Shown: positions 3,660 to 32,290 of the stretch, in pieces
Layout: the number at the start of each line of letters is the position of its first letter
How positions within the stretch are numbered: the first letter of the stretch is position 1
Source of the DNA: a virus
Reading direction: 5' to 3' (one strand)
Virus record (IMG/VR): IMGVR_UViG_3300013093_002926
Coordinates: 1 to 41,108 of that record
DNA: 41,108 nucleotides
Program-made: the position numbers and the translations under genes
The notes under the pieces: generated by a model
The model's input: only the letters and a program-made list of their open reading frames with translations
Told to the model about the DNA's origin: nothing
Database searches by the model: none

Positions 3660-4256
3660 ATGCAAGAAATAATTTATAATACAAATGAATTAAACCCTCC
3701 AGCGAAAATAGTTCCAGAGTTTGAACCTTATACGTTGGCTCCTCAGGATGCTGAAATATTAGGATCGAAAATACAAATTTTTGATTTTGGATATCCAAAT
3801 CATGATCCATTAGAAATTGGTTCTAGATTAGTAGAAACTGCAAAATTGCATAATTCTTTTGGGATTGCAGCAAATCAATGTGGTGAAAGATATAGGGTTT
3901 TTGTTGCTGGTGCTGATGAAAATTATATTGCATTTTTTAACCCAGAAATTATACTTGAATCTGAAGAAACGTCATTAATTCCTGAAACAGATTTGAGTAA
4001 TATGGGTTTGTTGTTGCATGTTAAACGGCCAAAATCTGTAACTGTTCAATTTCAAGATTTAAATGGTCAACTACAAACATTACACTTCGATGGTTTAACT
4101 GCAAGAATTGTACAACAATGTATTGACAGGTTAAATGGTATTGGGTTTGAGATGCGAGTTTCAAAATTGGTTCTTGATAGAGCAACTAAAGCTCTTGATA
4201 AAAAGGTTAAAAAATTCGTAAAACAAAATACTTATATAAAAACGGTGAGAAAATAA
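3660..4256 (+). CDS. peptide deformylase homologue lacking catalytic residues
   Basis: The fold is that of a bacterial or phage peptide deformylase: motif 1 is SFGIAANQCG (residues 66-75, for GxGxAAxQ), with the usual NPEI and the hydrophobic strands around motif 2. The catalytic motifs are destroyed, though. Motif 2 (EGCLS) reads ETDLS, so the metal-binding Cys is Asp111. Motif 3 (QHExDHLxG) reads QQCIDRLNG at residues 152-160, so both His ligands and the catalytic Glu are Gln153, Arg157 and Cys154. Deformylases are common in T4-like marine phages and normally keep these residues. The frame is intact at 198 aa, and the gene sits 2 nt after gene 46. It is probably a pseudoenzyme with a binding or structural role; deformylation is not expected. 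Confidence 0.8.
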   Translation: MQEIIYNTNELNPPAKIVPEFEPYTLAPQDAEILGSKIQIFDFGYPNHDPLEIGSRLVETAKLHNSFGIAANQCGERYRVFVAGADENYIAFFNPEIILESEETSLIPETDLSNMGLLLHVKRPKSVTVQFQDLNGQLQTLHFDGLTARIVQQCIDRLNGIGFEMRVSKLVLDRATKALDKKVKKFVKQNTYIKTVRK

Positions 4257-14336: not shown

Positions 14337-15245
14337 ATGAGTTTACTTGAAAAACTTAAAAAAAATTCAACGATAAAAGAATCATCTATTTTATCTGTAT
14401 CAAAATTTTTTACTAAAAAGGATATGATAACAACTCCAATTCCTGCGTTTAATGTTGCATTATCAGGCAGATTGGATGGCGGATTAACTCCAGGACTTTC
14501 ATTATTTTGTGGTCCTAGTAAACATTTTAAAAGCCTTTTTTGTTTGATTTTAGCTAAAGCATATATGGATAAATATCCAGAATCTGTATTAGTATTTTAT
14601 GATTGCGAATTTGGTACACCCGAAGCATATTTTGATTCATTAGGTATGGATAAAGATAGAATTCTCCATACCCCAATTATGAATATGGAAGAGTTTAAAT
14701 TTGATATTATTAATCACCTTCAAAATATTACTAGAGGCGACAAAGTAATATTTGTTGTTGATTCTTTAGGAAATATGGCTAGTAAAAAAGAAACTGATGA
14801 TGCTATTGATGGTAAATCTGTTGCTGATATGACTCGTGCAAAATCTATGAAATCTATGTTTCGTATGATTACACCATATCTAGTTAAATATGATATTCCT
14901 ATGGTAGCAGTAAATCATATCTATATGACTCAGGAAATGTTCAGTAAACCAGTCGTTAGCGGGGGTTGTGTTGTAGCAGGCACTAAAATTCAAATGTTTG
15001 ATGGATCGTCAAAATCTATTGAGGATATTACACCTGGATGTTTGGTTAAAACTCAAGATGGTCCTAAAATTGTTACACATAGTTGGAACCCAGAGACACT
15101 TTTAGATGGAAATCCAGAATGTTATAAAATTACATTTGAAGATGGTTACTCTGTAATTTGCTCTGATGAACACCCATTTCTTAAAAATTCAGAATTTGTA
15201 TCGGCAAAGGAACTTAGTATTGGAGATGATATAACAACATTGTGA
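14337..15245 (+). CDS. uvsX: UvsX recombinase N-terminal part fused to an N-intein
   Basis: Residues 1-210 are the N-extein: the RecA-like recombinase core with Walker A GPSKHFKS (59-66, T4-type FKS) and the Walker B-like VIFVVDSLGNM, ending in PVVSGG. From Cys211 (codon 14967) the protein becomes a 92-aa N-intein: CVVAGTKIQMFDGSSKSIED (block A, nucleophile Cys1) and a block B, GYSVICSDEHPFL, with the conserved His. It stops at TGA 15243-15245. The rest of UvsX is encoded at 15807-16364, so functional UvsX should need protein trans-splicing at SGG/TGV. An SD (aagga, 14325-14329) precedes the start. Confidence 0.93.
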   Translation: MSLLEKLKKNSTIKESSILSVSKFFTKKDMITTPIPAFNVALSGRLDGGLTPGLSLFCGPSKHFKSLFCLILAKAYMDKYPESVLVFYDCEFGTPEAYFDSLGMDKDRILHTPIMNMEEFKFDIINHLQNITRGDKVIFVVDSLGNMASKKETDDAIDGKSVADMTRAKSMKSMFRMITPYLVKYDIPMVAVNHIYMTQEMFSKPVVSGGCVVAGTKIQMFDGSSKSIEDITPGCLVKTQDGPKIVTHSWNPETLLDGNPECYKITFEDGYSVICSDEHPFLKNSEFVSAKELSIGDDITTL

Positions 15246-15248
15246 AAT

Positions 15249-15265
15249 TATAAATCTTATAAATG
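15249..15265 (+). promoter_or_regulatory. tandem late-promoter-like boxes before the endonuclease
   Basis: TATAAATC (15249-15256) and TATAAATG (15258-15265) each differ from the TATAAATA late consensus only at the last base and are spaced 9 bp apart. They lie just after the uvsX N-part stop and 55-70 bp before the endonuclease ATG. Late-promoter control of homing endonuclease genes is known in T4, which makes this placement suggestive only. Confidence 0.35.
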
Positions 15266-15319
15266 ATATCAGCAGAGTAATAAATGCCTGTGTCGAATTA
15301 ACTATTTATAGGAAACATA

Positions 15320-15810
15320 ATGCATATAGTATATTTATTTAAATTTAAAAGAAACAGGTTACCAAATTTATATATTGGGTCAAAAAGCAATTGTTATATT
15401 AAAGAAGGAAAAATATTTGATAAAAATAATAAATTATATGAAGGATCTTGTGATTCTAATGTGTATTTAGAAGCATTATCAAAATGTAATTATGAAGTTT
15501 TTATTTTAGGCGAATTTGATGTATATAATGATGCATTATCTATGGAACAAGATGCACATATTGCTAAAGTAATGCACATAGACAGGCATGTTCTAAAGCA
15601 CATAAAGGAACATTAACTGTAAAAAATGTTTTAACTGGTGAAATACAAAAAGTGGAAAAAAATATATTTGATACTGTTATGGATAAAGATGTTTGGGCAA
15701 CAACATCATCATTTCAAAAACGTGAAATTTGCATATATTGTGGGAAAGAAAGTGTGGTCGGTAATATTAAACGCTGGCATAATGATAATTGTAAAGAGAA
15801 AAAAATATGA
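15320..15810 (+). pseudogene. GIY-YIG homing endonuclease gene, frameshifted
   Basis: The first frame (15320-15616) gives a GIY-YIG-type N-terminus, VYLFKF...NLYIGSKSN (residues 4-25), with SD AGGAAA at 15310-15315 and a candidate catalytic Glu in SMEQDAHIA. It then runs to a stop, but a different frame (open from 15568 to TGA 15808-15810) continues with the expected C-terminus: CSKAHKGTLTV and a zinc-finger-like CIYCG...RWHNDNCKEK (CxxC...HxxxxC) typical of phage homing endonucleases. A -1 shift, an inserted base or a small deletion around 15565-15595 separates the halves. The final TGA overlaps the ATG of the C-intein gene (ATGA at 15807-15810), which supports the second frame as the original. 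No clear slippery heptamer is seen. Confidence 0.75.
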
Positions 15811-16364
15811 AAATTGTTAATATAGAAAAAGTTGGTAAAAGAAACGTATTTGATATAACTGTTGCTGATAATCATCAATATGTACTAGAAAATGGTGTTA
15901 TCACACATAATACTGGTGTTTATCTTTCTGCTGATAATATTTACATCTTGGGCAGACAACAAGAAAAAGAAGGTACTGATGTTGTTGGGTATAATTTTAT
16001 TATAAATGTTGAAAAATCAAGACATGTTCGTGAAAAATCAAAAATACCAATTACTGTAAAATATGAAGGCGGTTTAAGTTCTTGGTCAGGTTTAATTGAT
16101 ATGGCTCTAGAATCAGGACATGTTGTAAAACCATCTAATGGTTGGTATTCGCGAGTTAATACTGCGACAGGCGAGGTTGAAGAAAAGAAATATCGCCTTA
16201 AAGATACAGATACAAAGGACTTCTGGAATAAAATATTATTAGATAAAACTTTTCAAGATTGGATTAAATCTAATTATCAAGTATCTCATGGAAATATTTT
16301 AGCTTCAGATAAAGATATAGAACAAACATTTGCAGAAATTGGGGATGATGACGAAGAATTATAA
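15807..16364 (+). CDS. uvsX: C-intein fused to the UvsX C-terminal part
   Basis: Residues 1-35 are a C-intein: block F RNVFDITVADNHQYV and block G NGVITHN, ending in His34-Asn35, the residues that cyclise and cleave. The extein restarts with Thr36 (codon 15912) as TGVYLSADNIYILGRQQ, which continues T4 UvsX exactly where the N-part stopped (T4 GGTG.MYSA.). The 150 C-extein residues include VEKSRHVREKSKIPI and ALESGHVVKPSNGWYSR, as in T4 UvsX, and end acidic. Together with the 210-aa N-extein this gives a 360-aa recombinase (T4, 391 aa). Translation is probably coupled to the upstream endonuclease frame through ATGA. Confidence 0.93.
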   Translation: MKIVNIEKVGKRNVFDITVADNHQYVLENGVITHNTGVYLSADNIYILGRQQEKEGTDVVGYNFIINVEKSRHVREKSKIPITVKYEGGLSSWSGLIDMALESGHVVKPSNGWYSRVNTATGEVEEKKYRLKDTDTKDFWNKILLDKTFQDWIKSNYQVSHGNILASDKDIEQTFAEIGDDDEEL

Positions 16365-18250: not shown

Positions 18251-18586
18251 ATGGAAAAACGATATACAGTTGTTGGTGAAGATATTGATATATCTGATGG
18301 TTATCATACAATGTCAGAATTATATGCACATAGATGTACACTATTTGCTGCATTGTTAAAGTCTCACCCACAAGCTTCTTGGAAGAGTAAAAAACACAGC
18401 GATGGTACATCTTGGGATGGTTGGTTTATTGCTGGTATGAGATTACCAACAGGTGATGTTACATATCACCTTCCTGTAGACGAATTTTGGGAAATTCTTC
18501 CGATTGCTGAGTTGGAATTTGGTGTCGTTTGGGATGGTCATACATCTGATGATGTTGTGAGACGAATTATGGAATGGATAAAATGA
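18251..18586 (+). CDS. conserved phage protein of unknown function
   Basis: A 111-aa protein with many aromatic residues. It contains WDGWFIAGMRLPTGDVTYHLP and ends VVWDGHTSDDVVRRIMEWI; the pattern 'xYHLPxxxW...WDGHTSxDVVxR' marks a family of hypothetical proteins found across many phages. No catalytic motif is evident. It lies 3 nt after gene 41 and overlaps the first glycosyltransferase by ATGA (18583-18586), the left edge of the sugar cassette. Confidence 0.7.
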   Translation: MEKRYTVVGEDIDISDGYHTMSELYAHRCTLFAALLKSHPQASWKSKKHSDGTSWDGWFIAGMRLPTGDVTYHLPVDEFWEILPIAELEFGVVWDGHTSDDVVRRIMEWIK

Positions 18587-19293
18587 GTAGTGCTGTTGTA
18601 ATAATTCCAACAATTGGTTCTGTTGTTTTAGATCAAACATTAAAAAGTTTAGAGAATCAAACTCATAAAGATGTAACAACATTAATTGTTGTTGATGGTC
18701 CTGAATATAAATCTAAAGTTGATAATATTATAGATAAACATCCAAATTTAAACAAACAGGTTGTTTATTTACAAGAAAATGTTGGCGCAAATGGATTTTA
18801 TGGACAAAGAGTATATGCTGCATTTTCCCATTTAGTAAATAAAGATTATGTTTTCTATCTTGATCAAGATAATTGGTATGAGCCTAATCATATTGAATAT
18901 ATGATTAATACAATAGAATCTACTGGATGCCAATGGGCATATAGTTTAAGAAATATATATTCTCCTGATGGCGATTATTTGCTTCAAGATAATTGTGAAA
19001 GTTTGGGGAAATGGAACGCTTATACAAATACTAACATGGTTGATACTAATTGTTATTGTATTCCAAGAAATATAGCTGTAGAAATATCAAGATTTTGGCA
19101 TTGTGGTTGGGGTGAAGATCGTGTTATTTTCTCTATTTTAAATGAACATTTTCCTAATTATGAATGTTCTGGTAAATATACAATAAATTATAGATTAGGT
19201 GGAAATGTGGGTTCTGTATCAAAAGATTTTTTTGAACAGGGAAACAGTGTAATTGATAGTCAATATAAAGGAAAATATCCATGGGCGAAATAA
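18583..19293 (+). CDS. glycosyltransferase family 2
   Basis: This is a GT-A enzyme. AVVIIPTIGSVVLDQTLKSL opens the nucleotide-binding fold, and LIVVDGPEY and the DxD-type motif YFYLDQDNWY-like stretch (YVFYLDQDNWYEP) follow, with a C-terminal acceptor region containing HCGWGEDRVIF (the GEDR acid region). The 236-aa length is that of a single GT2 domain with no membrane span, so it is a soluble enzyme. ATG 18583 overlaps the stop of the preceding gene (ATGA) and starts the cassette. Donor and acceptor cannot be told. Confidence 0.8.
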   Translation: MSSAVVIIPTIGSVVLDQTLKSLENQTHKDVTTLIVVDGPEYKSKVDNIIDKHPNLNKQVVYLQENVGANGFYGQRVYAAFSHLVNKDYVFYLDQDNWYEPNHIEYMINTIESTGCQWAYSLRNIYSPDGDYLLQDNCESLGKWNAYTNTNMVDTNCYCIPRNIAVEISRFWHCGWGEDRVIFSILNEHFPNYECSGKYTINYRLGGNVGSVSKDFFEQGNSVIDSQYKGKYPWAK

Positions 19294-20048
19294 AAATATT
19301 ATGTTATATATTTTCTTGGAAAGGTCAGTTTGAAAATGCTGTCAAATTGCAAGAACAATTATCTCCGTTATTAGATGTAGTTGTAATAAATTCTGATGAT
19401 GATAATACAAAAGAGGGTTGGATTAATATTGGGAACGAATGTTATTTTTCTGATCAGTTTAGAACTGCTCTAGATGCATTTGATGATTCAAAATATGATG
19501 TTTTGTGGCATATTCAAGCTGATGCTTCTTATTCTGAGTGGGAACCAATTATAAAATCAGCAAGAGAAAGTTATAATACTTATAATTGGGGTGTATTTGC
19601 TCCAAATGTTAACGATACATTTTACATTTCAGAAAGAACTGATGTTTCAGATTTAGATGGAAATTTAAAACTTGTTGCAACAACTGATAATACTTGTTGG
19701 TTTATTCATAAAGATTATATTAATGCAATGAAAGCTAATTATCATTTAATGAGAGAAAATATTTTAGGTTGGGGTTGGGATTTAATTATTTGTGCTCTTA
19801 GTCATCTTGATGGTCGATATGTCATAAGAGATTATTCTTTCGAAGTTAATCATCCTACTTCAACAGGATATATGAAAGATAAAGCAGAGAAAGAAATGCA
19901 AGAAATGTTTCAAAAATGTGATTTAAAATTACAAGAAACTATTTATAATATTAAGGTAAAACCAAGAGAATTGGGAAAATTATATAATATTCAACAAGTT
20001 TCTAATTCTGCTGAAATAATTTATAATACTGCAACAGGAATTTATTGA
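19281..20048 (+). CDS. probable glycosyltransferase
   Basis: A 255-aa soluble protein with GT-A-like order: N-terminal Rossmann strand (ILCYIFSWKGQFENAVKL), VVVINSDDDN, a WHIQADASYSEWEP segment where Q-A-D replaces a classical DxD, and LGWGWDLIICALSHLDGRY, similar to the acceptor/catalytic region of GT2-type enzymes. It overlaps both neighbours (13 nt upstream; TGATG downstream), indicating translational coupling within the cassette. Family assignment is tentative. Confidence 0.6.
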   Translation: MGEIKILCYIFSWKGQFENAVKLQEQLSPLLDVVVINSDDDNTKEGWINIGNECYFSDQFRTALDAFDDSKYDVLWHIQADASYSEWEPIIKSARESYNTYNWGVFAPNVNDTFYISERTDVSDLDGNLKLVATTDNTCWFIHKDYINAMKANYHLMRENILGWGWDLIICALSHLDGRYVIRDYSFEVNHPTSTGYMKDKAEKEMQEMFQKCDLKLQETIYNIKVKPRELGKLYNIQQVSNSAEIIYNTATGIY

Positions 20049-20887
20049 TGAAAATTTCATATTTAGATTTTTGGCCAGGATTTGATCCTTCTTCAAATTG
20101 GTTTAATTTACTATTGCGTGGTGCATTTCCTGACAGAGAAATAAAAATAACAGCACCTGAATATGCTGATGTTATTTTCTTTTCATGTTTTGGTAGTGAA
20201 CATCAAGTATATAAAAATTCTAAAGCAATTAAAATTTTATATATTGGCGAAAATGAAAGACCCAATTATTCTGTTGCTGATTATTCGTTAAGTTTTGATT
20301 TTGATGATTATTCAGGAAGAAATTTTAGACTTCCTCATTGGTATCTATATATAAATTGGTGGGACGAACCAAATTTTCAACATGCTGAAATTCCATTGAT
20401 TGCTTTGACTAAATGGATTGACTCTAAAGAAATTTGGAATAGAAAAGAATTTTGTTCTATAATAATTGGTAATCCAGTTCAAAATAGAATAGATACTACA
20501 GCAAAATTAAACGAATTTAAACCTGTTCATGGATTTGGTAGGGTGTTTAATAATCCTGTAGATGATAAACTTAAACTTTTGTACAACTATAGGTGGAATA
20601 TTTGTTTTGAGAATTCTATATATGATGGATATGTGACAGAAAAATTATTACAAGCTAAAATTTCTGGGTGTATTCCTTTATATTATGGATCTAATGCAGC
20701 TACTATAGATTTTAATAAAGATTGTTATCTTGATATTACAGGTCTTTCATTAGAACAAATTTATAAAAAAGTTGTAGATATTGAAAATGATAAAAATCTA
20801 TTTTTGGCTATTTCTTCTGAGCCATTATTTAATACTTTACCAACATTAGACCCATTATATAATTTTTTAAAGGATAAATTAAAATAA
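20048..20887 (+). CDS. alpha-1,3/1,4-fucosyltransferase-like, GT10
   Basis: The C-terminal half has the GT10 donor-binding signature: WNICFENSIYDGYVTEKLLQ followed by AKISGCIPLYYGS (family: FENS..DYVTEK...A...G.VPV..G). The N-terminal half has ADVIFFSCFGSEH and ILYIGENERPNY, equivalent to the family's E/N-rich acceptor-lobe motifs. GT10 enzymes transfer L-fucose from GDP-fucose to GlcNAc-type acceptors, and GDP-fucose synthesis genes occur in this same cassette (26759 and 28528). The 279-aa length is short for bacterial GT10 but complete over the core. The ATG at 20048 overlaps the upstream stop (TGATG). Confidence 0.85.
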   Translation: MKISYLDFWPGFDPSSNWFNLLLRGAFPDREIKITAPEYADVIFFSCFGSEHQVYKNSKAIKILYIGENERPNYSVADYSLSFDFDDYSGRNFRLPHWYLYINWWDEPNFQHAEIPLIALTKWIDSKEIWNRKEFCSIIIGNPVQNRIDTTAKLNEFKPVHGFGRVFNNPVDDKLKLLYNYRWNICFENSIYDGYVTEKLLQAKISGCIPLYYGSNAATIDFNKDCYLDITGLSLEQIYKKVVDIENDKNLFLAISSEPLFNTLPTLDPLYNFLKDKLK

Positions 20888-20888
20888 T

Positions 20889-21812
20889 ATGCAAAAAGAT
20901 TTTTATGAAATAAATGATTTGATTGGTGAGCGATTACAATCTGGAGAACCATTTTCTGTTTTGCGTATTGATAATACTGCTGGATATGTTCTTGATTGTT
21001 TACACGAAAAACAATCTCCAAGCGAAGAATTTTACAATAATTATACGTTAGTTGAAAGTGGAATTTATCCGACTGATTTAAATTATTCATTTCAGGTTGT
21101 GATGCCTAAAACTATAGAAATGATGAAACAATGTAATATTTTAGGGTTTGTTGATGTTTCTGGTAAAATTAAAGCAAATGAAAATAAATTTTTAGATCAA
21201 TTCCCAGATAAACCCACATTTTTTGATTTTCATATTTTTGATGCTGGATATATAATGGGGTATTCTAAGTTTGGAAAACTAGAAAATCCTTGGACAAAAT
21301 ATCTCAAAGGGAAAAAGGTTCTTATTATTTCTTCCCATGCAAAAACGATTTTACATCAATGGAAAAATATTAATAAAATATGGGGCGATAGAGTAGAAGA
21401 AATAGTTCCTTTTGAATTGGTTGATGCAATCAGTACGCCATTTCATCCTGCTATTGATGATAGACAATATAAAGATTGTGGTGATTTTGAGCAATTAGTA
21501 AATATAACGAAAGATAGAATTGATCAATATGATTATGATGTATTATTAACAAGCGTTACAACACAATCTCCGTTTTATGCAAATCATGCTAGAGAAAGAG
21601 GGAAGGTTGGTATACAAACTGGCGGTGCTTTACAGTTATTTTTTGGTATTTTAGGTGGAAGATGGTTGAATCCTGATTATTATAATTATTGTTATCCATC
21701 ACCAGAAAAATTATTTAATGAGCATTGGATTTATCCTCTTGAAGAAGATGAACCACAAAAACGAAACGAAATTGGATTTCTTGAAACCTCAACTGCATAT
21801 TGGAAAGTATAA
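20889..21812 (+). CDS. putative GT-D-fold glycosyltransferase
   Basis: A 307-aa protein. FSVLRIDNTAGYVL near the N-terminus, KVLIISSHAKTI in the middle and DVLLTSVTTQSPFYANHARER then VGIQTGGALQLFFGILGGRW near the end resemble the layout of GT-D-type glycosyltransferases and related phage/bacterial proteins (conserved R-x-x-x near the start, then a Rossmann core with a G-G-A-L-Q type loop). It lies 1 nt after the GT10 gene and 3 nt before the RfbH-like gene. The family call is from pattern memory, so moderate. Confidence 0.55.
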   Translation: MQKDFYEINDLIGERLQSGEPFSVLRIDNTAGYVLDCLHEKQSPSEEFYNNYTLVESGIYPTDLNYSFQVVMPKTIEMMKQCNILGFVDVSGKIKANENKFLDQFPDKPTFFDFHIFDAGYIMGYSKFGKLENPWTKYLKGKKVLIISSHAKTILHQWKNINKIWGDRVEEIVPFELVDAISTPFHPAIDDRQYKDCGDFEQLVNITKDRIDQYDYDVLLTSVTTQSPFYANHARERGKVGIQTGGALQLFFGILGGRWLNPDYYNYCYPSPEKLFNEHWIYPLEEDEPQKRNEIGFLETSTAYWKV

Positions 21813-21815
21813 ATT

Positions 21816-23150
21816 ATGAATAATAATGATTTAAGTGAAATTTTAGCATCAGTAAAAAGTTATGCTGAAAATAATTTGTTGACAAAAAAATGGGAAGCTG
21901 GTATTGATTATGTAAATTATGCTGGTCCATTTTTTGATCATAATGAATATGTTGCTGCCGTAAATACTATTTTAAATGGTTGGCTTGTGATGGGAAATGA
22001 TAGTTTGAAATTTGAACATAAATTTCCTAAATTTTTTGGTAAAAATCATGGGATTCTAACAAATAGTGGATCTAGTTCAAATTTGTTAATGATGTATAGC
22101 CTAACAAGCAAAAACGGTCATAATTTCCCAAAAGGAACAAAAGTCTTGATGCCTATTGCTGGTTTCCCGACAACATTAAATCCGACACTTCAAGTTGGAT
22201 TTGAACCTATATTTCTTGATATCGAATTAGATACTTTAAATCTTGATTTAACTAAAGCTGAAGACTTGATAAAAGAACATGACATTAAAATAATAACATT
22301 TGCTCATGTTTTAGGTAATCCGCCAGATATGGACAAATTGATGGATTTAGTTAACAAATATAATTTGATTCTTTTGGAAGATTGTTGTGATGCTTTAGGT
22401 TCTAGTTATGATGGAAAACCATTAGGCAGTTTTGGTGAGATGGCTTCTTGTAGTTTTTATCCAGCACATCATATTACAATGGGTGAAGGTGGATTTGTTT
22501 CTTGTAACACTAAAGAACAAGAAGTTATTTTAAGAAGTTTAAGAGAGTGGGGTCGTGGTTGTTATTGTGTTGGTCCCAAAGCAAATACCCTAAAATGTGG
22601 AACATGTAAAAATAGATTTAGTAATTGGATTCCAGCATTGGAAAATGAAACTTTTGATCACAAATATGTTTATGATGAAATTGGATTTAATTTAAAGCCT
22701 ATTGAAATGCAAGCATCAATTGGTCTTCATCAAATTGAGAAATTGGATACTATTGGACAATTAAGAAAGAAAAATTATAATCTGTTATTTCAAATTTATG
22801 AAAAATATGAAGAATTCTTTCATCTTCCAAGAGCTAGAGATAAATCTGATGTGAGTTGGTTTGCTTTTCCATTGACTATTAGAAAAGGTGCTCCATTTAC
22901 ACGATTTGAGTTTGTTAATTATCTTGAAAATAAAAAAATTCAAACTAGACCATATTTTGCTGGAAATATTATGTTACAACCTGCGTATACACATATTATG
23001 GATACAAATACTGCAAAAGTGAATTATCCAAATGCAACATATACTACTACACATACATTATTCCATGGAACAAGTCCAGTAATTAGCGATGATCAAATTG
23101 CCTATATAAAAATAGTAGTAGATGATTTTATGAAACAGTTTATAGGATAG
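21816..23150 (+). CDS. rfbH: RfbH/E1-like sugar 3-dehydratase (PLP/PMP, Fe-S)
   Basis: This is a DegT/DnrJ-fold enzyme, but the active-site Lys is His218 (SFYPAHHITMGEGG, residues 213-226), the hallmark of CDP-4-keto-6-deoxyglucose 3-dehydratase (E1, RfbH/DdhC). The E1-specific iron-sulfur Cys region is present in modified form: C190/C191, C249-x-C251, then C261 and C264 (CGTC), followed by FDHKYVYDEIGFNLKPIEMQ as in E1. It removes the C3 hydroxyl of a nucleotide-linked 4-keto-6-deoxyhexose, the committed step to 3,6-dideoxysugars. At 444 aa it is full length. Neither a CDP-glucose cytidylyltransferase (RfbF) nor an obvious E3 reductase is in the window, so the true nucleotide carrier is open. 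Confidence 0.88.
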   Translation: MNNNDLSEILASVKSYAENNLLTKKWEAGIDYVNYAGPFFDHNEYVAAVNTILNGWLVMGNDSLKFEHKFPKFFGKNHGILTNSGSSSNLLMMYSLTSKNGHNFPKGTKVLMPIAGFPTTLNPTLQVGFEPIFLDIELDTLNLDLTKAEDLIKEHDIKIITFAHVLGNPPDMDKLMDLVNKYNLILLEDCCDALGSSYDGKPLGSFGEMASCSFYPAHHITMGEGGFVSCNTKEQEVILRSLREWGRGCYCVGPKANTLKCGTCKNRFSNWIPALENETFDHKYVYDEIGFNLKPIEMQASIGLHQIEKLDTIGQLRKKNYNLLFQIYEKYEEFFHLPRARDKSDVSWFAFPLTIRKGAPFTRFEFVNYLENKKIQTRPYFAGNIMLQPAYTHIMDTNTAKVNYPNATYTTTHTLFHGTSPVISDDQIAYIKIVVDDFMKQFIG

Positions 23151-23153
23151 GTT

Positions 23154-23840
23154 ATGATTTTATTGGCATCGATTCATACCCCATTAAATGGGTATGAACA
23201 AAATGATTTTTCTGAAGTTGCAAATATTACTTGGAATTTAAATAAGGTAAATTATGCTAAAAAACATAATTATCTTGCAATAAGTAAATCGAATGGTTTT
23301 TATAATGTTCAAATAGGGTTTGAAAAAATAATTTTTCTTTATGATTTGTTAGTTAGCGTTCCTCAGTGTTCTTGGATTTGGTGGACTGGTTGTGATACAC
23401 TAATTACAAATTTTAATGTTAGAGTTGAAGAAAAGCTTGAAGAAGCATTAAACATAAATCCAAACGCAAATATTATTATGAGTGGTGATTTTAATTTCCC
23501 TATTAATAGTGATTCTATTTTGATTAAAAATACTGAAGAATCGAAATTGTGGTTAAAATTTATACTTGATAATTTTGAGGTATATTCACAAAAACCATAT
23601 TTTGAACAAGAATGTATGATTGATTTTTTATCAAATTTTGATAAACTGATTCAAATAATGCCACAAAATTTTATGAATAGTTATGATGAAAATTCGGCTG
23701 ATAGTGAAAAGATAAAATTTGATACAAAAGGTAATAGAGGTAATTGGGAAAAGGGTGATTGGTTATTACATCTTGCTGGAATTAGCTGGCAAAAACGTGC
23801 CCAATTGGTTAAACAATATTCTAAAGAAATAATATATTAA
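23154..23840 (+). CDS. probable glycosyltransferase, GT34-like
   Basis: A 228-aa protein. VNYAKKHNYLAI, WIWWTGCDTLITN (a D-containing nucleotide-sugar site) and the C-terminal NWEKGDWLLHLAG resemble the galactosyl/mannosyltransferase GMA12/MNN10 (GT34) layout, where an R/A-D-x-D site is followed by a G-D-x-x-x-H-h-x-G end motif. The D-x-D is not classical. It is 3 nt after the RfbH-like gene and 1 nt before the TPP pair, so it belongs to the same operon. Confidence 0.6.
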   Translation: MILLASIHTPLNGYEQNDFSEVANITWNLNKVNYAKKHNYLAISKSNGFYNVQIGFEKIIFLYDLLVSVPQCSWIWWTGCDTLITNFNVRVEEKLEEALNINPNANIIMSGDFNFPINSDSILIKNTEESKLWLKFILDNFEVYSQKPYFEQECMIDFLSNFDKLIQIMPQNFMNSYDENSADSEKIKFDTKGNRGNWEKGDWLLHLAGISWQKRAQLVKQYSKEIIY

Positions 23841-23841
23841 T

Positions 23842-24468
23842 ATGAAAGATCAAGAACTTATTGAATTTGAAAACAAAGTTGCTGATTTGTTTAATAATAA
23901 ACAAATTAGAGCTCCTATCCATTTATATCATGGAAATGAAAAGCAAATACAAACAGTATTTGAAAAAATAGATACTGAAAATGACTGGGTTTGTTGTACA
24001 TGGAGAAATCACTATCAATGCTTATTAAAAGGTGTTCCTGAAGAATTGTTGATAGAGAAAATCCTTGCTGGTAAAAGTATGGTAATAAACTTGGAACAAT
24101 ATAAAATTGTATGTTCAAGTATTGTTGGTGGAATTCCTAGTATTGCAGCTGGTATTGCAAAAGCAATCCAACTTAAAGAAGAAAAATCTAGAGTCTGGTG
24201 TTGGTTAGGGGATATGAGTGCTGAAACTGGAGCTTTTCATGAAGCATATAAATATGCTGTTGGATTTAATCTTCCAATAACATTTATTGTTGAAGATAAT
24301 GGATTAAGTGTTACATCTCCAACTTCAGAAATTTGGGGTAGACAAACTCCTTGGTATTTACCTGAAGAGTTTACTGGTGATAAATTTGAATCAGAACATT
24401 TAATATACTACAAATATAAAAACGAAAAATATCCTCATGCTGGTGCTGGGGTTAGGGTGGAATTTTAA
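23842..24468 (+). CDS. TPP-dependent E1 alpha-like subunit
   Basis: A 208-aa protein with the TPP pyrophosphate-binding motif GDMSAETGAFHEAY...VEDNGLSV (GDG-x(25-30)-N type, with the FHEA of E1 alpha subunits) and the upstream DWVCCTWRNHYQCLLKGVP, equivalent to the E1 alpha 'H...L..G.P' region. It is much shorter than a dehydrogenase E1 alpha (about 330-400 aa). No E2 lipoyl acyltransferase or E3 is nearby, so 2-oxoacid oxidation is unlikely. Paired with the next gene, it looks like a two-part carboligase that moves a two-carbon unit onto a ketosugar, as proposed for branched-chain sugar pathways. That role is inference. Confidence 0.75.
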   Translation: MKDQELIEFENKVADLFNNKQIRAPIHLYHGNEKQIQTVFEKIDTENDWVCCTWRNHYQCLLKGVPEELLIEKILAGKSMVINLEQYKIVCSSIVGGIPSIAAGIAKAIQLKEEKSRVWCWLGDMSAETGAFHEAYKYAVGFNLPITFIVEDNGLSVTSPTSEIWGRQTPWYLPEEFTGDKFESEHLIYYKYKNEKYPHAGAGVRVEF

Positions 24469-24469
24469 T

Positions 24470-25012
24470 ATGAATGAACAACAATTATATAATAATGAAT
24501 TGATCGCTGCCATGAAATGGCTTTCTGAGCAAGAAAATACTTTATTTTTGGGTCAGGCTGTTAAATATCCAGGAACTGGATTATTTCAAACATTACATTC
24601 TGTTCCTGACGAATTGAAACTTGAATTTCCTGTTACCGAAAATTTACAAATAGGATTTAGTATTGGAATGGCATTAAATGGTATTGTTCCAATTTCTATT
24701 TTCCCAAGGTGGAATTTTCTTGTTTGTGCCGCCGATCAACTCGTCAATCATTTAGATAAATTGCCATCAATGAGTCTTGGTGAATATAACCCAAAAGTTA
24801 TCATTAGAGTTGCTGTTGGGTCAGAATTACCTATCGATCCACAAGACCAACATAAAGGTAATTTTTCTGAAGGATTTAGAAATTTGTTTAAACATGTAGA
24901 TATTATTGAATTACACACACCTGATGATATTTTAAAAAGTTATCAGTATGCATATAATAGAACTGATAATAAAAGTACAATATTAGTAGAATTTTCTGAT
25001 TATGGAAAATGA
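24470..25012 (+). CDS. TPP-dependent E1 beta-like subunit (Pyr domain)
   Basis: A 180-aa partner of the preceding gene. The block FPVTENLQIGFSIGMALNGI carries the conserved Glu (TEN) that activates TPP in E1 beta subunits, followed by ISIFPRWNFLVCAADQLVNH, matching the E1 beta FxDF...A.DQI.N region. The C-terminal transketolase domain of full E1 beta proteins is absent, so this is a minimal Pyr-domain subunit. The start is ATG 24470, 1 nt after the alpha stop; an upstream extension to 24437 lies inside alpha. It overlaps the next SDR gene by 11 nt. Confidence 0.75.
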   Translation: MNEQQLYNNELIAAMKWLSEQENTLFLGQAVKYPGTGLFQTLHSVPDELKLEFPVTENLQIGFSIGMALNGIVPISIFPRWNFLVCAADQLVNHLDKLPSMSLGEYNPKVIIRVAVGSELPIDPQDQHKGNFSEGFRNLFKHVDIIELHTPDDILKSYQYAYNRTDNKSTILVEFSDYGK

Positions 25013-25796
25013 TTCTGATATTTTAATATTAGGATCTACAGGATTTATTGGTAATTTTCTTTCAAAGAATTTAAATTGTGTTTCATTGTCTAGAAACGAT
25101 GTCAATTTTTTGGATTTTGATTCTTTGTATAAATGTATAAAAAAAATAAAACCAAAAGTTGTTGTTAATTGTGCGTCTAATGTTGATACCCAATTAACAA
25201 CATTTAAATTTGAATGTTTCCATGAAAACTTAACATTATATAATAATATATATAAAATGAAAGACGAATTTGAATTTGTTCTTCATTTTGGTTCTGGGGC
25301 TGAATTTGATAGATCTTCTTCTATTGATTATGTTAAAGAATACGAAATCTTTAAAAAATTCCCAAAAGATCATTATGGTTTTAGTAAAAATATAATTTCA
25401 AGAAATATTTATGAGGTTGATAATTTTTATAACCTTAGATTATTCGGTTGTTTTCATGGCTCAGAAAAATCTAGATTGTTGTATAAGGTATTATTAGAAG
25501 ATAATATAATACTAGAAGATAAGTTGTTTGATTATTTTTGGTTGAATGATGTTCTTGAAGTTATAAATTATTATTTAAATCCGAAAAACGAAAAAATAAA
25601 AGATTTGAATTTGGTATATAAAGAAAAATATCTGTTAAGTGAGTTTGTAAATAAATTTTTAACATTCCATAACATTCAAAAAACAATTAAATTCAAAGAT
25701 TCACATATAAATTATACAGGTTCGTCTAAAGTATTAGATTCATTAAATTTAAATTTTGGCGGTATTGAAAAGGGCATTAAGGATTATTTTAAATGA
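25002..25796 (+). CDS. SDR-type nucleotide-sugar reductase/epimerase
   Basis: A 264-aa extended-SDR protein with the NAD(P) motif GSTGFIG (residues 11-17), VVNCASNVDTQ, a LHFGSGAEFDR strand carrying the Ser region and YGFSKN, which fits the catalytic YxxxK (DHYGFSKNIISRNIY). It lacks clear family signatures for a specific product. Its position directly after the TPP pair suggests it reduces the keto group left by acyl transfer, as YerF does after YerE in yersiniose synthesis; that comparison is by context only. It overlaps the next gene by 4 nt (ATGA). Confidence 0.7.
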   Translation: MENDSDILILGSTGFIGNFLSKNLNCVSLSRNDVNFLDFDSLYKCIKKIKPKVVVNCASNVDTQLTTFKFECFHENLTLYNNIYKMKDEFEFVLHFGSGAEFDRSSSIDYVKEYEIFKKFPKDHYGFSKNIISRNIYEVDNFYNLRLFGCFHGSEKSRLLYKVLLEDNIILEDKLFDYFWLNDVLEVINYYLNPKNEKIKDLNLVYKEKYLLSEFVNKFLTFHNIQKTIKFKDSHINYTGSSKVLDSLNLNFGGIEKGIKDYFK

Positions 25797-26740
25797 AAAA
25801 GATTATTTATGTTACAGGATGTCTAGGGTTTATAGGTTCTGAAATAACAAGAGCATATTTAGATAAAGGTTGGTATGTTATTGGTGTTGATAAAGTCACA
25901 TATGCTGCAAATGAATCATTAATACCAGAATTTGAATCATATTCAAATTTTAAATTTATAAAATCAGATATAAACGATTTAGAATATCTTTATGATTGTG
26001 ATTATATTATTAACACAGCAGCCGAAACACATGTAGACAATTCTATAATAAGTTCTAGCGAATTTTTAAATAGTAACATTAATGGTGTGCATCATCTATT
26101 GGAGTTAATAAAACAAAAACATAAATTTAAAATGCCAACATTACTACATTTCAGTACTGATGAAGTTTATGGTGATATAGTTGATGGGTTTCATAAAGAA
26201 TATGATTTATTAAAACCTTCAAATCCTTATTCGGCAACAAAAGCTTCTGCGGATATGCTTGTTCTTGCATGGAATAGAACTTTTAATATTCCTTATGTTA
26301 TTGTGCGTCCAACAAATAATTATGGTATTGGTCAGTATGTTGAAAAATTAATACCTAAAACATGTAAATATCTGCAATTAGATAGAAAAATTCCTGTACA
26401 TGAAAATGGAAAACCAAAACGAACTTGGTTACATGTTTCTGATACTGTTTCAGCAGTTATACATATAATTGAATCGGGAGTAACAAATTCAATTTTTAAT
26501 ATTTCTGGAAATTATGAAGATGAGAATATTAAAGTAGTTGACAAAATCATAAAATTATATTATAATACTTCTATAGATTATAATAATTATGTTGATTTTA
26601 AATATAATAGGATTGGTCAAGATGTTAGGTATGCTATTGATGATTCAAAATTAAAATCTCTTGGATGGAATCCTGTTGCAAATTTTGATTTAGAATTAGA
26701 GAAAATTGTTGAATATAATAAAAATCGCTTTATATGGTGA
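25793..26740 (+). CDS. RmlB-like nucleotide-sugar 4,6-dehydratase
   Basis: A 315-aa extended SDR with dTDP-glucose 4,6-dehydratase signatures: VTGCLGFIGSEI (NAD-binding), VDKVTYAAN, NTAAETHVDNSI, FSTDEVYGD (catalytic TDE) and NPYSATKASADML (YxxxK). VRPTNNYGIGQYVEKLIP and GKPKRTWLHVSDT complete the RmlB pattern. It would supply a 4-keto-6-deoxyhexose, the substrate needed by an RfbH-type dehydratase. No thymidylyltransferase (RmlA) is in the window, so the NDP-glucose would come from the host. A strong promoter-like sequence lies inside it (26538-26566). Confidence 0.87.
   Translation: MKKIIYVTGCLGFIGSEITRAYLDKGWYVIGVDKVTYAANESLIPEFESYSNFKFIKSDINDLEYLYDCDYIINTAAETHVDNSIISSSEFLNSNINGVHHLLELIKQKHKFKMPTLLHFSTDEVYGDIVDGFHKEYDLLKPSNPYSATKASADMLVLAWNRTFNIPYVIVRPTNNYGIGQYVEKLIPKTCKYLQLDRKIPVHENGKPKRTWLHVSDTVSAVIHIIESGVTNSIFNISGNYEDENIKVVDKIIKLYYNTSIDYNNYVDFKYNRIGQDVRYAIDDSKLKSLGWNPVANFDLELEKIVEYNKNRFIW
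26538..26566 (+). promoter_or_regulatory. consensus sigma70 promoter-like sequence within a gene
   Basis: TTGACA (26538-26543) and TATAAT (26561-26566), both perfect, are 17 bp apart, inside the RmlB-like coding region and about 190 bp upstream of gmd. It may be an internal promoter for the GDP-fucose half of the cassette; chance occurrence in AT-rich coding DNA cannot be excluded. Confidence 0.45.
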
Positions 26741-26758
26741 TTAATTGAAGGTGAACTT

Positions 26759-27766
26759 ATGAAGAAAGCGTTAATATTTGGTGTAACTGGTCAAGATGGG
26801 AGTTATCTTTCTGAAATTCTTTTAGAAAAAGGTTATGAGGTTCATGGTGTAAAACGAAGAAGTTCTTCATATAATACATCACGAATCGATCATATCTATG
26901 AAAACAAAAACTTTAAATTACATTATGGTGATGTTACTGATTCGCTTAATGTGACAAGTCTTATTCAAGCAATTCAGCCTGATGAGATCTATAATTTGTC
27001 CGCTCAATCTCATGTAAAAGTTTCTTTTGAAATTCCAGAATATACTGCGAATGTTGATGCTGTAGGTACTCTTAGAGTTCTTGAATCTATTCGTTTACTT
27101 GGTATGGAAAATCGAGTTAAATTTTATCAAGCATCAACTTCTGAATTGTATGGTTTAGTGCAAGAAATTCCACAAAAAGAAACAACTCCATTTTATCCAA
27201 GAAGTCCATATGGCGTTGCTAAACTCTATGGATTTTGGATTGTAAAAAATTATAGAGAATCATATAATATATTTGCGTGTAATGGTATTTTATTTAATCA
27301 CGAATCTGAGAGAAGAGGTGAAACTTTTGTCACTCAGAAAATTGTAATGGGATTAAATGATATTTCTCAAGGCAAATCAGACATATTGACGCTTGGTAAT
27401 TTAAATGCATTAAGAGATTGGGGTCATGCTAAAGATTATTGTTATGCCATGCATTTAATGCTCCAACAAGATACTCCAGATGATTATGTCGTTGCTACTG
27501 GCGAACAATATTCCGTTAGACAATTTGTAGAAGCTTGCGCCCCGCATTTTAATATGAACATTGAATGGCAAGGTGAAGGCTTGGATGAAACTGGAATTGA
27601 TGTTAATACTGGAAAAACTATAATTGCAGTTGATCCTAAGTATTTTAGACCAGCAGAAGTTGCAACATTATTAGGTGATTCTACAAAAGCTAGAACTGTA
27701 TTAGGATGGAAACCAGAATATAGTTTTATTGATTTGGTTGAAGAAATGTGTTTAGGGGTTCAATAG
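26759..27766 (+). CDS. gmd: GDP-mannose 4,6-dehydratase
   Basis: This enzyme converts GDP-D-mannose to GDP-4-keto-6-deoxy-D-mannose, the shared precursor of GDP-L-fucose and GDP-colitose. The signatures are unmistakable: [44 protein letters not shown] and [16 protein letters not shown] (YxxxK), and [18 protein letters not shown]. At 335 aa it is the usual length. SD aaggtg lies at 26748-26753. The NodZ-like gene and GDP-fucose synthase follow immediately, forming a functional unit. Confidence 0.96.
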
Positions 27767-28525
27767 GTGAGCATAGTTTTACGTGAAGAATCTGGTCGTG
27801 GATTTTTGTCAAATTATATTACAATTTTAAATTCGTATAAAAAGTTTGTTGGTAAAGAAGGAATATCTTATAAAGATATACACATTTCAACAGAACATTT
27901 TAAATTGTATGGTGGAAATCCTAGAGAATGGTTTGATGTTTATAATTTTTCTGATGGCGACGAAAACTCGGAATTCTGGAGTACTGGAGAGTTAAATGAA
28001 ATTGAAGAATATCCAAATGTTGAATCCTTAAATTTATTAAGTTATTCAAAGTTTATACCATATAATACAAGACTTAAAACATTTCTTAATAAAAATATAA
28101 AATCATTAAATAAATGTTTAGGTGTTCATTATAGAGGGACTGATCATTTTAATGCTATTATTAAACCTGATATTATGTTTCTTAATGTAGAAGAACAGTT
28201 AAAAACAGGTAAATATGAGCAAATTTTTATTTGTAGCGAACAACAAAACTTTATTGATCTTATAGCAGGTTTTGTTCAAATTAATTTTAATGATGTTGAT
28301 ATAATTGTTAATGATGTTGAACGATGTGATTCAACTCCTGTATTTTATTTAGATACCAATAAGATATCATTAGGCGATCAAGTTTTATTGGATGCTCATA
28401 TGTTATCAGCTTGTGATTTTGTATTGGGTAAATCATCAAACATTGTTAGTTATGCACGGATTCTAAATTTAAGTTTGAATGGTTTTTATTTAGATACTCA
28501 AAAATATTTTTTAATTGGTAATTAA
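27767..28525 (+). CDS. NodZ/GT23-like (fucosyl)transferase
   Basis: A 252-aa protein with LGVHYRGTDH (family H-x-R-x-T-D, GDP-binding) and the C-terminal LLDAHMLSACDFVLGKSSNIVSYARI stretch (two blocks: DAHMLSACDF and LGKSSNIVSYA), which corresponds to the donor-binding end motif of NodZ/FUT8-type alpha-1,6-fucosyltransferases and related O-fucosyltransferases. It starts at GTG 27767, immediately after the gmd stop, with AGGGG at 27754-27758 as SD. Its place between gmd and fcl supports use of GDP-fucose. Confidence 0.7.
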   Translation: MSIVLREESGRGFLSNYITILNSYKKFVGKEGISYKDIHISTEHFKLYGGNPREWFDVYNFSDGDENSEFWSTGELNEIEEYPNVESLNLLSYSKFIPYNTRLKTFLNKNIKSLNKCLGVHYRGTDHFNAIIKPDIMFLNVEEQLKTGKYEQIFICSEQQNFIDLIAGFVQINFNDVDIIVNDVERCDSTPVFYLDTNKISLGDQVLLDAHMLSACDFVLGKSSNIVSYARILNLSLNGFYLDTQKYFLIGN

Positions 28526-28527
28526 TT

Positions 28528-29460
28528 ATGGAAAAGAATTCAAAAATTTATGTTGCTGGCCATAATGGCTTAGTTGGTTCGGCAATTGTTAGAAAATTAA
28601 AAGAATTAGGATATACTAATCTTGTTTTAAAAACAAGAAAAGAATTAGATCTTAGGAATCAATATGCTGTTGACAGGTTTTTTGATATTGAGCGACCTGA
28701 ATATGTTTTTGTTGCTGCAGCAAAAGTTGGTGGAATTAATTACAATAAAATGTATCCTGCAGAATTTATTACTGAAAATTTACAAATTCAAACAAATATA
28801 ATCAAAAGTGCTTTTGATTATAGAATAAAAAAGATTTGTCAATTGGGTACTGCTTGCATTTATCCTAAAATAACAGAACAACCAATAAAAGAAGAATACT
28901 TAATGACAGGTCCATTAGAACATACTAATGAAGCTTATGCATTAGCTAAAATTTCTGGTTTGATGATGTGTAAAAAATATTATGAACAATATGGATTTAA
29001 AAGTATTAATGTGATGCCAACAAATCTTTATGGTATAAATGATAGATTTGATGTGAATCATGGTCATGTTATTCCTGGATTAATTAATAAATTTTTAGAA
29101 GCTAAAGAAAGCAATTCTAGTAGTGTAGAATGTTGGGGAACTGGTACTCCTACAAGAGAATTTTTATTTTCTGATGATTTAGCTGATGCATTGATTTTTC
29201 TGATGAATACTCAAGAATATGTTGATTTGATTAATATTGGTATTGATAATGAAATTACTATTAAAGAATTGGCAGAAAAGATTAAAGATTTGGTTGGATA
29301 TGAAGGTGAAATAATTTGGAATTCTGATAAACCGGATGGAACTCCAAGAAGAAAGATGTGTAATGCTAAATTGAAAGAACTTGGTTGGAAACCAAAATAT
29401 ACTTTAGAAGAAGGATTAAAAATAACATTAGATTGGTATTTGGAAAACATTAGGTCATAA
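28528..29460 (+). CDS. fcl: GDP-L-fucose synthase (epimerase/reductase)
   Basis: This enzyme makes GDP-L-fucose from the Gmd product. Signatures: YVAGHNGLVGSAIVRKL, AAAKVGGINYNK, QLGTACIYPK, NEAYALAKISG (Tyr/Lys pair) and NHGHVIPGLI (conserved His), with the typical FLFSDDLADA. The catalytic Ser of the family's LGSSCIYPK is Thr here (LGTAC), a conservative change that keeps the hydroxyl, while the second Ser is Ala. At 310 aa it is full length. ColC-type enzymes of GDP-colitose synthesis belong to the same family, so a colitose role is an alternative given the ColD-like gene next door. Confidence 0.9.
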   Translation: MEKNSKIYVAGHNGLVGSAIVRKLKELGYTNLVLKTRKELDLRNQYAVDRFFDIERPEYVFVAAAKVGGINYNKMYPAEFITENLQIQTNIIKSAFDYRIKKICQLGTACIYPKITEQPIKEEYLMTGPLEHTNEAYALAKISGLMMCKKYYEQYGFKSINVMPTNLYGINDRFDVNHGHVIPGLINKFLEAKESNSSSVECWGTGTPTREFLFSDDLADALIFLMNTQEYVDLINIGIDNEITIKELAEKIKDLVGYEGEIIWNSDKPDGTPRRKMCNAKLKELGWKPKYTLEEGLKITLDWYLENIRS

Positions 29461-29462
29461 TA

Positions 29463-30641
29463 ATGAAAAAATTGAAATTGAAATGTGGTTGGAAATTGAT
29501 GAATAATTCTATCACAATAAAAGATAGAATTAATTTGGCTAAATTTGTTTTATTTTCTGATAGATTCACTATGGCAGATAAAGTAAACCAAGTAGAGAAA
29601 GAATGGGCTGAATGGGTTGGCGCTAAACATTCTTTATTTGTTTCTTCTGGAAGTACTGCAAATTTTTTATTATTAGCTGCGATTAAAGAAAAATTTAATT
29701 TAAAACAAAAAGATAAAGTTTTAGTTTCTTCTTGTACTTGGATGACAAATGTTTCTCCAGTAATGCAATTAGGTTTTACTCCTATCTTTTGTGATGTTTC
29801 TTTTGATAATTTCAGTTTTGATGAATCTGAATTAGCATATATTTCAGAAAAACATCCTGACATTAAAGTTGTTTTTACAACACACCTTTTGGGATTTAAT
29901 TCAGATACTAAAATATTAGAATCATATTTTCCAAATGCTATCATATTAGAAGATGCGTGTGAAGCAATGGGTGCAAAAGCTAATGATGGAACTTATCTTG
30001 GTGCAAATTCTTTAGGGTGTACATTCAGTTCATATTTTGGTCATACTATTTCTTCAATTGAAGGTGGTTTTGTTACTACAAATGATACAGAATTATATGA
30101 TTTGATGAAAATGAAAAGAAGTCATGGTTTAGCGAGAGAATCAATATTTTTTGATGATTATGCTGCCAAATATCCTTATATTGATAAACAGTTTTTATTT
30201 ATTACTGATGGTTATAATTTCAGAAACCACGAAATATGTGCAATTTTAGCTTCTTCTCAGATTAAAAGATTAAAATCCTTTGTTGATATTAGAAGTAAAA
30301 ATCATAAATTGTTTTCTGAGATGACTGAAAAATATTTAGATAAAATTCAACAGATTAAATTTTATGAAACTAGTGCGAGTTTTTGTTTTCCTATTATATG
30401 TAAGGATGCAGAATCGTTATCTAAATTAAAATCGTTGTTGGTAGAATATGATATTGAATATAGACCAATTTTATCTGGAAATTTATTAAAACATCCATTT
30501 CTAAAAGATTATATATTGACAACGAATCGTTTAGTCGCTAATGTTGATGTATTACACACTAATGGATTATATATAGGAAATAATCAATTTGTATCTGAAA
30601 AACATTTAAAGTTATTGGATAAAGTTTTAAGTTTATTATAA
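29463..30641 (+). CDS. ColD-like PLP sugar 3-dehydratase
   Basis: This is a second DegT/DnrJ-fold enzyme with His in place of the Schiff-base Lys: SSYFGHTISSIEGGF (His194), as in GDP-4-keto-6-deoxymannose 3-dehydratase (ColD). Other fold motifs are FVSSGSTANFLLL (phosphate-binding), ILEDACEAMGA (PLP ring Asp) and DGYNFRNHEICAILASSQI (NxR/H region). No Fe-S Cys cluster is present, as expected for ColD and unlike the RfbH-like gene. The substrate would come from Gmd two genes upstream. Start uncertain: ATG 29463 (392 aa) or ATG 29499 (residue 13), whose downstream sequence looks more family-like. Confidence 0.82.
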   Translation: MKKLKLKCGWKLMNNSITIKDRINLAKFVLFSDRFTMADKVNQVEKEWAEWVGAKHSLFVSSGSTANFLLLAAIKEKFNLKQKDKVLVSSCTWMTNVSPVMQLGFTPIFCDVSFDNFSFDESELAYISEKHPDIKVVFTTHLLGFNSDTKILESYFPNAIILEDACEAMGAKANDGTYLGANSLGCTFSSYFGHTISSIEGGFVTTNDTELYDLMKMKRSHGLARESIFFDDYAAKYPYIDKQFLFITDGYNFRNHEICAILASSQIKRLKSFVDIRSKNHKLFSEMTEKYLDKIQQIKFYETSASFCFPIICKDAESLSKLKSLLVEYDIEYRPILSGNLLKHPFLKDYILTTNRLVANVDVLHTNGLYIGNNQFVSEKHLKLLDKVLSLL

Positions 30642-30648
30642 GGGTTTT

Positions 30649-32279: not shown

Positions 32280-32290
32280 TTGAGATTAAT

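What the first reader, a model, noticed from the sequence alone, without database searches (positions are those of the whole stretch)
14337..16364. UvsX recombinase made as two genes joined by a split intein, with an endonuclease in the break
The recombinase reading frame ends in an N-intein (Cys211, blocks A and B), and a separate gene starts with a C-intein ending His-Asn, followed by Thr and the rest of UvsX. The joint SGG/TGV falls in the conserved GGTG of T4 UvsX. A GIY-YIG endonuclease frame fills the 560-bp gap. 'Fractured' genes of this type are known from phage metagenomes; this copy interrupts the essential strand-exchange protein and keeps all splicing residues I can see (Cys1, block B His, His-Asn, Thr+1).
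Basis: partly seen in the sequence, partly recalled or inferred. Interest (0 to 1): 0.93.

Follow-up and report, generated by a model that had tools for sequence, protein, structure and literature searches.

The report
Phage recombinase split by trans-splicing intein
A T4-like phage makes its DNA strand-exchange protein as two separate pieces that very probably splice themselves together; the DNA-cutting gene that once spread this break is a broken remnant here, and relatives show stages from fresh invasion to apparent repair.

Summary
Window 14337-15245 encodes UvsX residues 1-210 plus a 92-aa N-intein; 15807-16364 encodes a 35-aa C-intein plus 150 aa of UvsX. Cys1, block B His, His-Asn and Thr+1 are present; the joined product would be 360 aa. 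Trans-splicing itself is inferred. Two corrections: the endonuclease in the break is dead (358 bp deleted and frame lost, relative to L004), and uvsX is not strictly essential in T-even phages. The arrangement is widespread: the N-intein matches 25 of 50,697 phage records (19 phages), and the 81 intein-positive uvsX loci tallied here are 72 split and 9 continuous. The cassette moved recently: window and L004 differ at 29 of 928 cassette positions but 291 of 1,071 extein positions, with sharp edges. A sister contig (L101) has a larger endonuclease deletion. In another intein type, near-identical alleles run from split with an HNH-like endonuclease, through split without it, to one continuous frame that keeps the ribosome-binding site and ATG as a scar: an apparent healed fracture. 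The window is a new member of the known 'fractured gene' kind; the allele series is the surprising part.

The parts
14337..14966 (+). UvsX N-extein, residues 1-210, ending SGG
   Evidence: phmmer to T4 UvsX 3io5, E 1e-64; PHROG 97 and 8337
14967..15242 (+). N-intein, 92 aa, Cys1 = Cys211, block B CSDEH; stop codon 15243-15245
   Evidence: 25 of 50,697 phage records match it
15320..15616 (+). 98-aa remnant frame: first 82 codons (15320-15565) of a GIY-YIG-like homing endonuclease, then 16 out-of-frame codons
   Evidence: PHROG 7504 homing endonuclease E 7.2e-11; alignment with the intact gene of L004
15566..15582 (+). Approximate junction of a 358-bp deletion relative to L004 (exact breakpoint ambiguous)
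   Evidence: gap lengths 561 and 919 nt
15583..15810 (+). 3' end of the endonuclease gene, 75 codons in another frame, with the zinc-binding-like CIYC..RWHNDNC tail; its TGA (15808-15810) overlaps the ATG of the C-half
15807..15911 (+). C-intein, 35 aa, ending Thr-His-Asn
   Evidence: Intein_splicing 20.7 bits, below cut-off
15912..16361 (+). UvsX C-extein, 150 aa, beginning Thr-Gly-Val; stop codon 16362-16364
   Evidence: T4_UVSX_C 65.4 bits; PHROG 18112 for the whole C-half

Best explanation
This is a fractured uvsX gene of a T4-like phage. Shown: two genes each carry half of UvsX and half of a class 1-type intein with the splicing residues, and the homing endonuclease gene between them has lost 358 bp and its frame relative to L004. 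Shown by sequence comparison: the intein-endonuclease cassette moved recently between divergent phages, with edges sharp to 6 nt on the 5' side and 5 nt on the 3' side. Inferred: the two precursors meet, the intein halves fold into one HINT domain, and Cys211, the C-intein Asn and Thr+1 splice UvsX into a 360-aa recombinase. Inferred: an intact endonuclease of the L004 type cuts empty uvsX alleles in mixed infections and recombination copies the cassette in. Once resident the endonuclease is dispensable and decays, while the splicing halves stay under selection because full-length UvsX depends on them.
For: Anatomy and residues. Cys1 in 81 of 81 loci, block B His in 80 of 81, His-Asn in 79 of 81 at the scored place and a 39-aa C-intein in the other two. 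dN/dS of the halves 0.04-0.21 where it could be estimated. 358-bp deletion against L004; L001-L003 share it; L101 has a further 396-bp deletion in the same phage type. Window/L004: cassette 29 of 928 nt differ, exteins 291 of 1,071, Fisher p 3e-55; dS 0.035 in the N-intein, 2.2 and 2.5 in the exteins. Extein and intein trees place window and L004 differently. Best solved match gp41-1, a split intein used in many trans-splicing papers (listing).
Against: No splicing, cleavage or homing was measured. The AU test does not reject a window + L004 extein clade (p = 0.065). The C-intein and N-intein alone fall below Pfam's cut-off. The AlphaFold2 model of the L102 intein is weak (pLDDT 61); its fold-search hits are headed by inteins including gp41-1 but none reaches E 0.001. 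L255 lacks the block B His. The close relatives are metagenome contigs.
Confidence: 0.87

Rival explanations
1. The two halves work as non-covalent pieces of UvsX, with the intein halves serving only to bring them together (as in the 'genes-in-pieces' ribonucleotide reductase cited in PMC10448857).
For: A case of a nuclease gene splitting a functional enzyme without splicing is cited there (passage).
Against: The nucleophiles Cys1, Asn and Thr/Ser+1 would not need to be kept, yet they are in the loci tallied.
Confidence: 0.06
2. The split uvsX is a decaying pseudogene and the phage relies on the host RecA.
For: UvsX is not strictly essential in T6 (PMC13096335 passage); the endonuclease between the halves is already broken.
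Against: Both halves are open, low dN/dS, conserved in window, L001-L004, L006 and L101.
Confidence: 0.05
3. The break or the deletion is an assembly artefact.
For: All close copies are metagenome contigs, and near-identical cassettes in co-occurring phages can mislead assemblers.
Against: L001-L003 have the same break and deletion, L003 with its own differences; 15 cultured phages examined have the same break.
Confidence: 0.02

Closest known systems
'Fractured genes' with split inteins and free-standing endonucleases (Dassa et al. 2009; title seen in reference lists, paper not held; content recalled)
   Same: Gene cut in two, each half with an intein half, endonuclease ORF in the break
   Different: Gene is uvsX; nuclease is GIY-YIG-like or HNH-like, whereas the new endonuclease family of that paper is recalled as the EDxHD/Vsr-like type; here the nuclease is broken
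gp41-1 split intein (6qaz)
   Same: Best solved sequence match of the intein (E 4.6e-6), similar split place
   Different: Different host gene; gp41-1 splicing is measured, this one is not
Split intein in DNA polymerase of T4-like Aeromonas phages (Aes123 PolB1; PMC11923092, passages)
   Same: Split intein in a replication gene of a T4-like phage
   Different: That intein is cysteine-less; this one uses Cys1; different gene
SegA of phage T4 (PMC2988022, passages)
   Same: GIY-YIG homing endonuclease whose target is uvsX
   Different: SegA lies between intact uvsX and beta-gt, without an intein
Split uvsX halves in GenBank phage records (e.g. Yersinia phage TG1, Proteus phage Pm5461; PHROG 8337 and 18112)
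   Same: Same insertion point, same intein family, endonuclease in the break
   Different: Exteins and inteins 50-60% identical to the window; most have a full-length endonuclease frame

Membership tests
Class 1-type split intein | Cys or Ser at position 1, block B His, C-terminal His-Asn, Cys/Ser/Thr at +1 | tested here: met
   Window residues; 81-locus tally
Class 1-type split intein | Homology to known inteins over both halves | tested here: met
   gp41-1 6qaz aligned over residues 6-140 of the continuous homologue L102, E 4.6e-6; window halves 53% and about 60% identical to L102 parts. Window halves alone are below Pfam's cut-off
Class 1-type split intein | Splices in trans | not testable with these tools
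   Needs expression and mass spectrometry
Fractured gene (Dassa et al. 2009) | Two genes with intein halves flanking an endonuclease ORF | tested here: met
   in this copy the endonuclease is a remnant
Fractured gene (Dassa et al. 2009) | Endonuclease of the family named in that paper | not tested
   Paper not held
GIY-YIG homing endonuclease (SegE-like) | GIY...YIG motifs and catalytic Glu | tested here: inconclusive
   Tyr5, Tyr18-Ile-Gly and Glu76 invariant in 11 aligned rows; PHROG 7504 E 7.2e-11; SegE_GIY-YIG only in relative L022 and below cut-off (18.4 of 25 bits); fold search of a poor model gave nothing
GIY-YIG homing endonuclease (SegE-like) | Intact enzyme in the window | tested here: not met
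   358-bp deletion and frameshift
UvsX recombinase | Homology to T4 UvsX over both exteins | tested here: met
   3io5 E 1e-64; T4_UVSX_C 65.4 bits

The most novel reading that the evidence does not exclude
Fracture by a split intein is a reversible, circulating state. The cassette homes into uvsX, the endonuclease dies by deletion (as in the window), and a further deletion re-fuses the halves into one gene with a cis-splicing mini-intein that keeps the old ribosome-binding site and start codon as a coding scar. The same break also accepts different nuclease domains (GIY-YIG-like or HNH-like) on a shared DNA-binding tail.
Probability: 0.7. Interest if true: 0.75.

Novelty: new member of a known kind. 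Interest (0 to 1): 0.62.

Why it matters
Homing in T4-like phages uses RecA or UvsX (PMC2988022 passage), yet this element sits inside the recombinase gene and makes its product depend on trans-splicing. Near-identical alleles from fresh to dead to re-fused make the homing cycle of split inteins testable, and give natural pairs of trans- and cis-splicing versions of one intein for biochemistry.

Tried and rejected
An intact GIY-YIG endonuclease in the window: rejected after alignment with L004. A single-assembly accident: rejected from L001-L003 and cultured phages. Pfam gave no GIY-YIG hit for the intact L004 enzyme, only NUMOD3; a profile of 11 such enzymes matched the DNA-binding part of I-TevI (1i3j, 1.8e-5). 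AlphaFold2 of the L004 enzyme was poor (pLDDT 44) and its fold search gave nothing. Five protein alignments misplaced C-halves or C-exteins and were not used for trees. AU test of a window + L004 extein clade: p = 0.065, not rejected. In the first tally L225 was mis-scored as split because its contig ends before a stop codon; corrected (9 continuous, 72 split). L184's C side differs from L188's (C-extein 68%); it may be a recombinant or chimeric contig and is not used for the healing argument. Literature: nine searches listed no paper whose title or abstract describes a split-intein uvsX; I read passages of a few only, and the library holds open-licence papers alone, so this is weak evidence of absence.

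Full report
Observation. UvsX residues 1-210 end in SGG, a 92-aa N-intein begins with Cys211, and the second gene begins with a 35-aa C-intein ending His-Asn before Thr and 150 aa of UvsX. The N-extein aligns with T4 UvsX (3io5, E = 1e-64) up to the GG at the joint, and the second gene carries T4_UVSX_C (65.4 bits). PHROG families 8337 and 18112 match the two halves including intein parts (4.8e-81 and 9.3e-66). Upstream lies a family B DNA polymerase and downstream a DnaB-like helicase, as in T4-like phages.

The endonuclease is a remnant. L004 (89% identical over the N-half) has an open frame of 282 codons from ATG 2651 in the break. The window has the first 82 codons, then a 358-bp deletion that is not a multiple of three, then the last 75 codons in another frame. 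L001-L003 carry the same remnant; L003 matches the window at 99.945% over 10,909 columns. L101 is the same phage type (99.46% over 1,111 nt and 99.95% over 3,937 nt) with a further 396-bp deletion between two GTGAAAT repeats, which keeps the N-half stop codon. So in this phage type two deletion forms of the endonuclease exist while both splicing halves are kept. L101 is a single contig.

Recent movement. Leaving out the deletion and 17 nt at its junction, window and L004 differ at 29 of 928 aligned cassette positions but at 291 of 1,071 extein positions (Fisher p = 3e-55); dS is 0.035 in the N-intein and 2.2 and 2.5 in the exteins. The shared stretch ends 6 nt before and 5 nt after the cassette. 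On the extein tree of 45 chosen rows L004 joins empty L016 and L021 (100/96) and the window type joins empty L019 (97/91); on the intein tree of 26 rows window and L004 are together (100/98). Presence of the intein needs nine changes on the extein tree, at least four forced by starred branches. An AU test did not reject a window + L004 extein clade (p = 0.065); the DNA contrast is the stronger evidence. L005 (with cassette) and L021 (empty) share 96.5% of N-extein DNA.

Breadth. The window N-intein finds 25 of 50,697 phage records at E <= 1e-4; six are RefSeq copies of others in the list, leaving 19 phages. Of 16 cultured phage records that I opened, 15 are split with an ORF in the break and one, Serratia phage PS2, is uninterrupted. 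A scan of viral contigs with the N-intein alignment matched 169 stretches, 151 of them relatives, 80 kept. From all loci held, after dropping duplicates, L018, L035 and L117 (second insertion site) and loci cut before or far from the C-intein, 81 remain, some of them near-copies: 72 split and 9 continuous. Of the split ones 52 have a gap of 500 nt or more, 16 under 160 nt and 4 between (with L225 moved to continuous). All 81 have Cys1; 80 have the block B His (L255 has Gln there); 79 read His-Asn at the scored place, followed by Thr (78) or Ser (1), and the other two have a 39-aa C-intein. dN/dS of the halves is 0.04-0.21 in the pairs where dS was finite; several dS values are near saturation.

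Two nucleases, one tail. Breaks hold either a GIY-YIG-like enzyme (L004, L022, L024 and the cultured phages opened) or an HNH-like one (L008, L009, L144; broken in L132; L184 and L188-L190 by motif). Pfam's HNH model hits L008 and L144 just below its cut-off and misses L009; it passes in L018, which is at the second site. About the last 130 residues of the L004 enzyme match the HNH-like ones at 31-36% identity (L106 3e-14, L115 8e-14, L132 1e-13, L144 4e-17). That the nuclease domain was exchanged over a shared DNA-binding tail is an inference.

Apparent healing. One intein type (N-intein DNA 96.7-100% identical) exists as split with an HNH-like gene in a 732-nt gap (L184, L188, L189, L190), as split with two different endonuclease deletions (L183, gap 36 nt; L185-L187, gap 52 nt, still holding the gene's 3' end), and as one continuous frame (L102, L103, L180). 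L103 and L185 align over 5,175 columns with a single 46-nt gap and 29 mismatches; L103 and L186 over 6,563 columns with the same gap. L188 and L180 have identical exteins. The continuous frame reads GAATAC|GAGGAAATTATG, a ribosome-binding site and start codon kept as coding sequence, which points from split to continuous rather than the reverse. The junction is the same in two phage backgrounds, so the fused allele itself has probably moved. Caution: near-identical cassettes in co-occurring phages can produce chimeric contigs; L184 may be one. On the 81-row intein tree split/continuous needs seven changes (bootstrap 5-7; at least three forced by starred branches), with few columns for so many rows. 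Four of the nine continuous loci lack the ATG scar (L195, L202, L203, L225), so they may be older fusions or never split.

Known or new. Fractured genes with split inteins are known by title (Dassa 2009; not held), and a split intein in the DNA polymerase of T4-like Aeromonas phages is described in PMC11923092 (passages). Decay of endonucleases in resident inteins is the homing cycle described in PMC3229294 (passages). No paper on a split-intein uvsX turned up in nine searches, but several GenBank records annotate both halves as recombinase, some with the endonuclease. The window is therefore a new member of a known kind. What would surprise a specialist is the allele series, above all the apparent re-fusion.

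Correction.

Noticed in passing
L018 5001-7244; L035; L117; L119: A second split-intein insertion site in uvsX, nine residues upstream (YM|TQE), with an HNH endonuclease (24.8 bits, cut-off 21.4); empty relative L016 is 96.5% and 94.5% identical in extein DNA.
   Followed up: partly
L009 1827-4982: DNA polymerase also fractured, at the DTDS site, by another split intein with an 81-nt gap and no endonuclease, directly upstream of the fractured uvsX: one phage with two fractured replication genes.
   Followed up: partly
L090 833-3375 (Vibrio phage vB_VmeM-32): DNA polymerase annotated in three pieces upstream of the fractured uvsX, with a C-intein-like match at 2644-2736.
   Followed up: no
window 18574-33295: Glycan and nucleotide-sugar gene cluster in a T4-like phage: GT2, two DegT aminotransferases, E1/transketolase-like pair, GDP-mannose 4,6-dehydratase, epimerase, GT11 fucosyltransferase-like; nine of its proteins scanned.
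   Followed up: partly
window 3660-4256: Peptide deformylase-like gene (85.5 bits).
   Followed up: no
L184 5033-5421: N side 99.97% identical to L180 over 3,441 nt, C side only 75%: a recombination point or a chimeric contig at the C-intein.
   Followed up: no
L084 4472-5426 (Yersinia phage TG1); L090 4348-4897: Endonuclease in the break of these cultured phages is also in two frames, suggesting decay.
   Followed up: no
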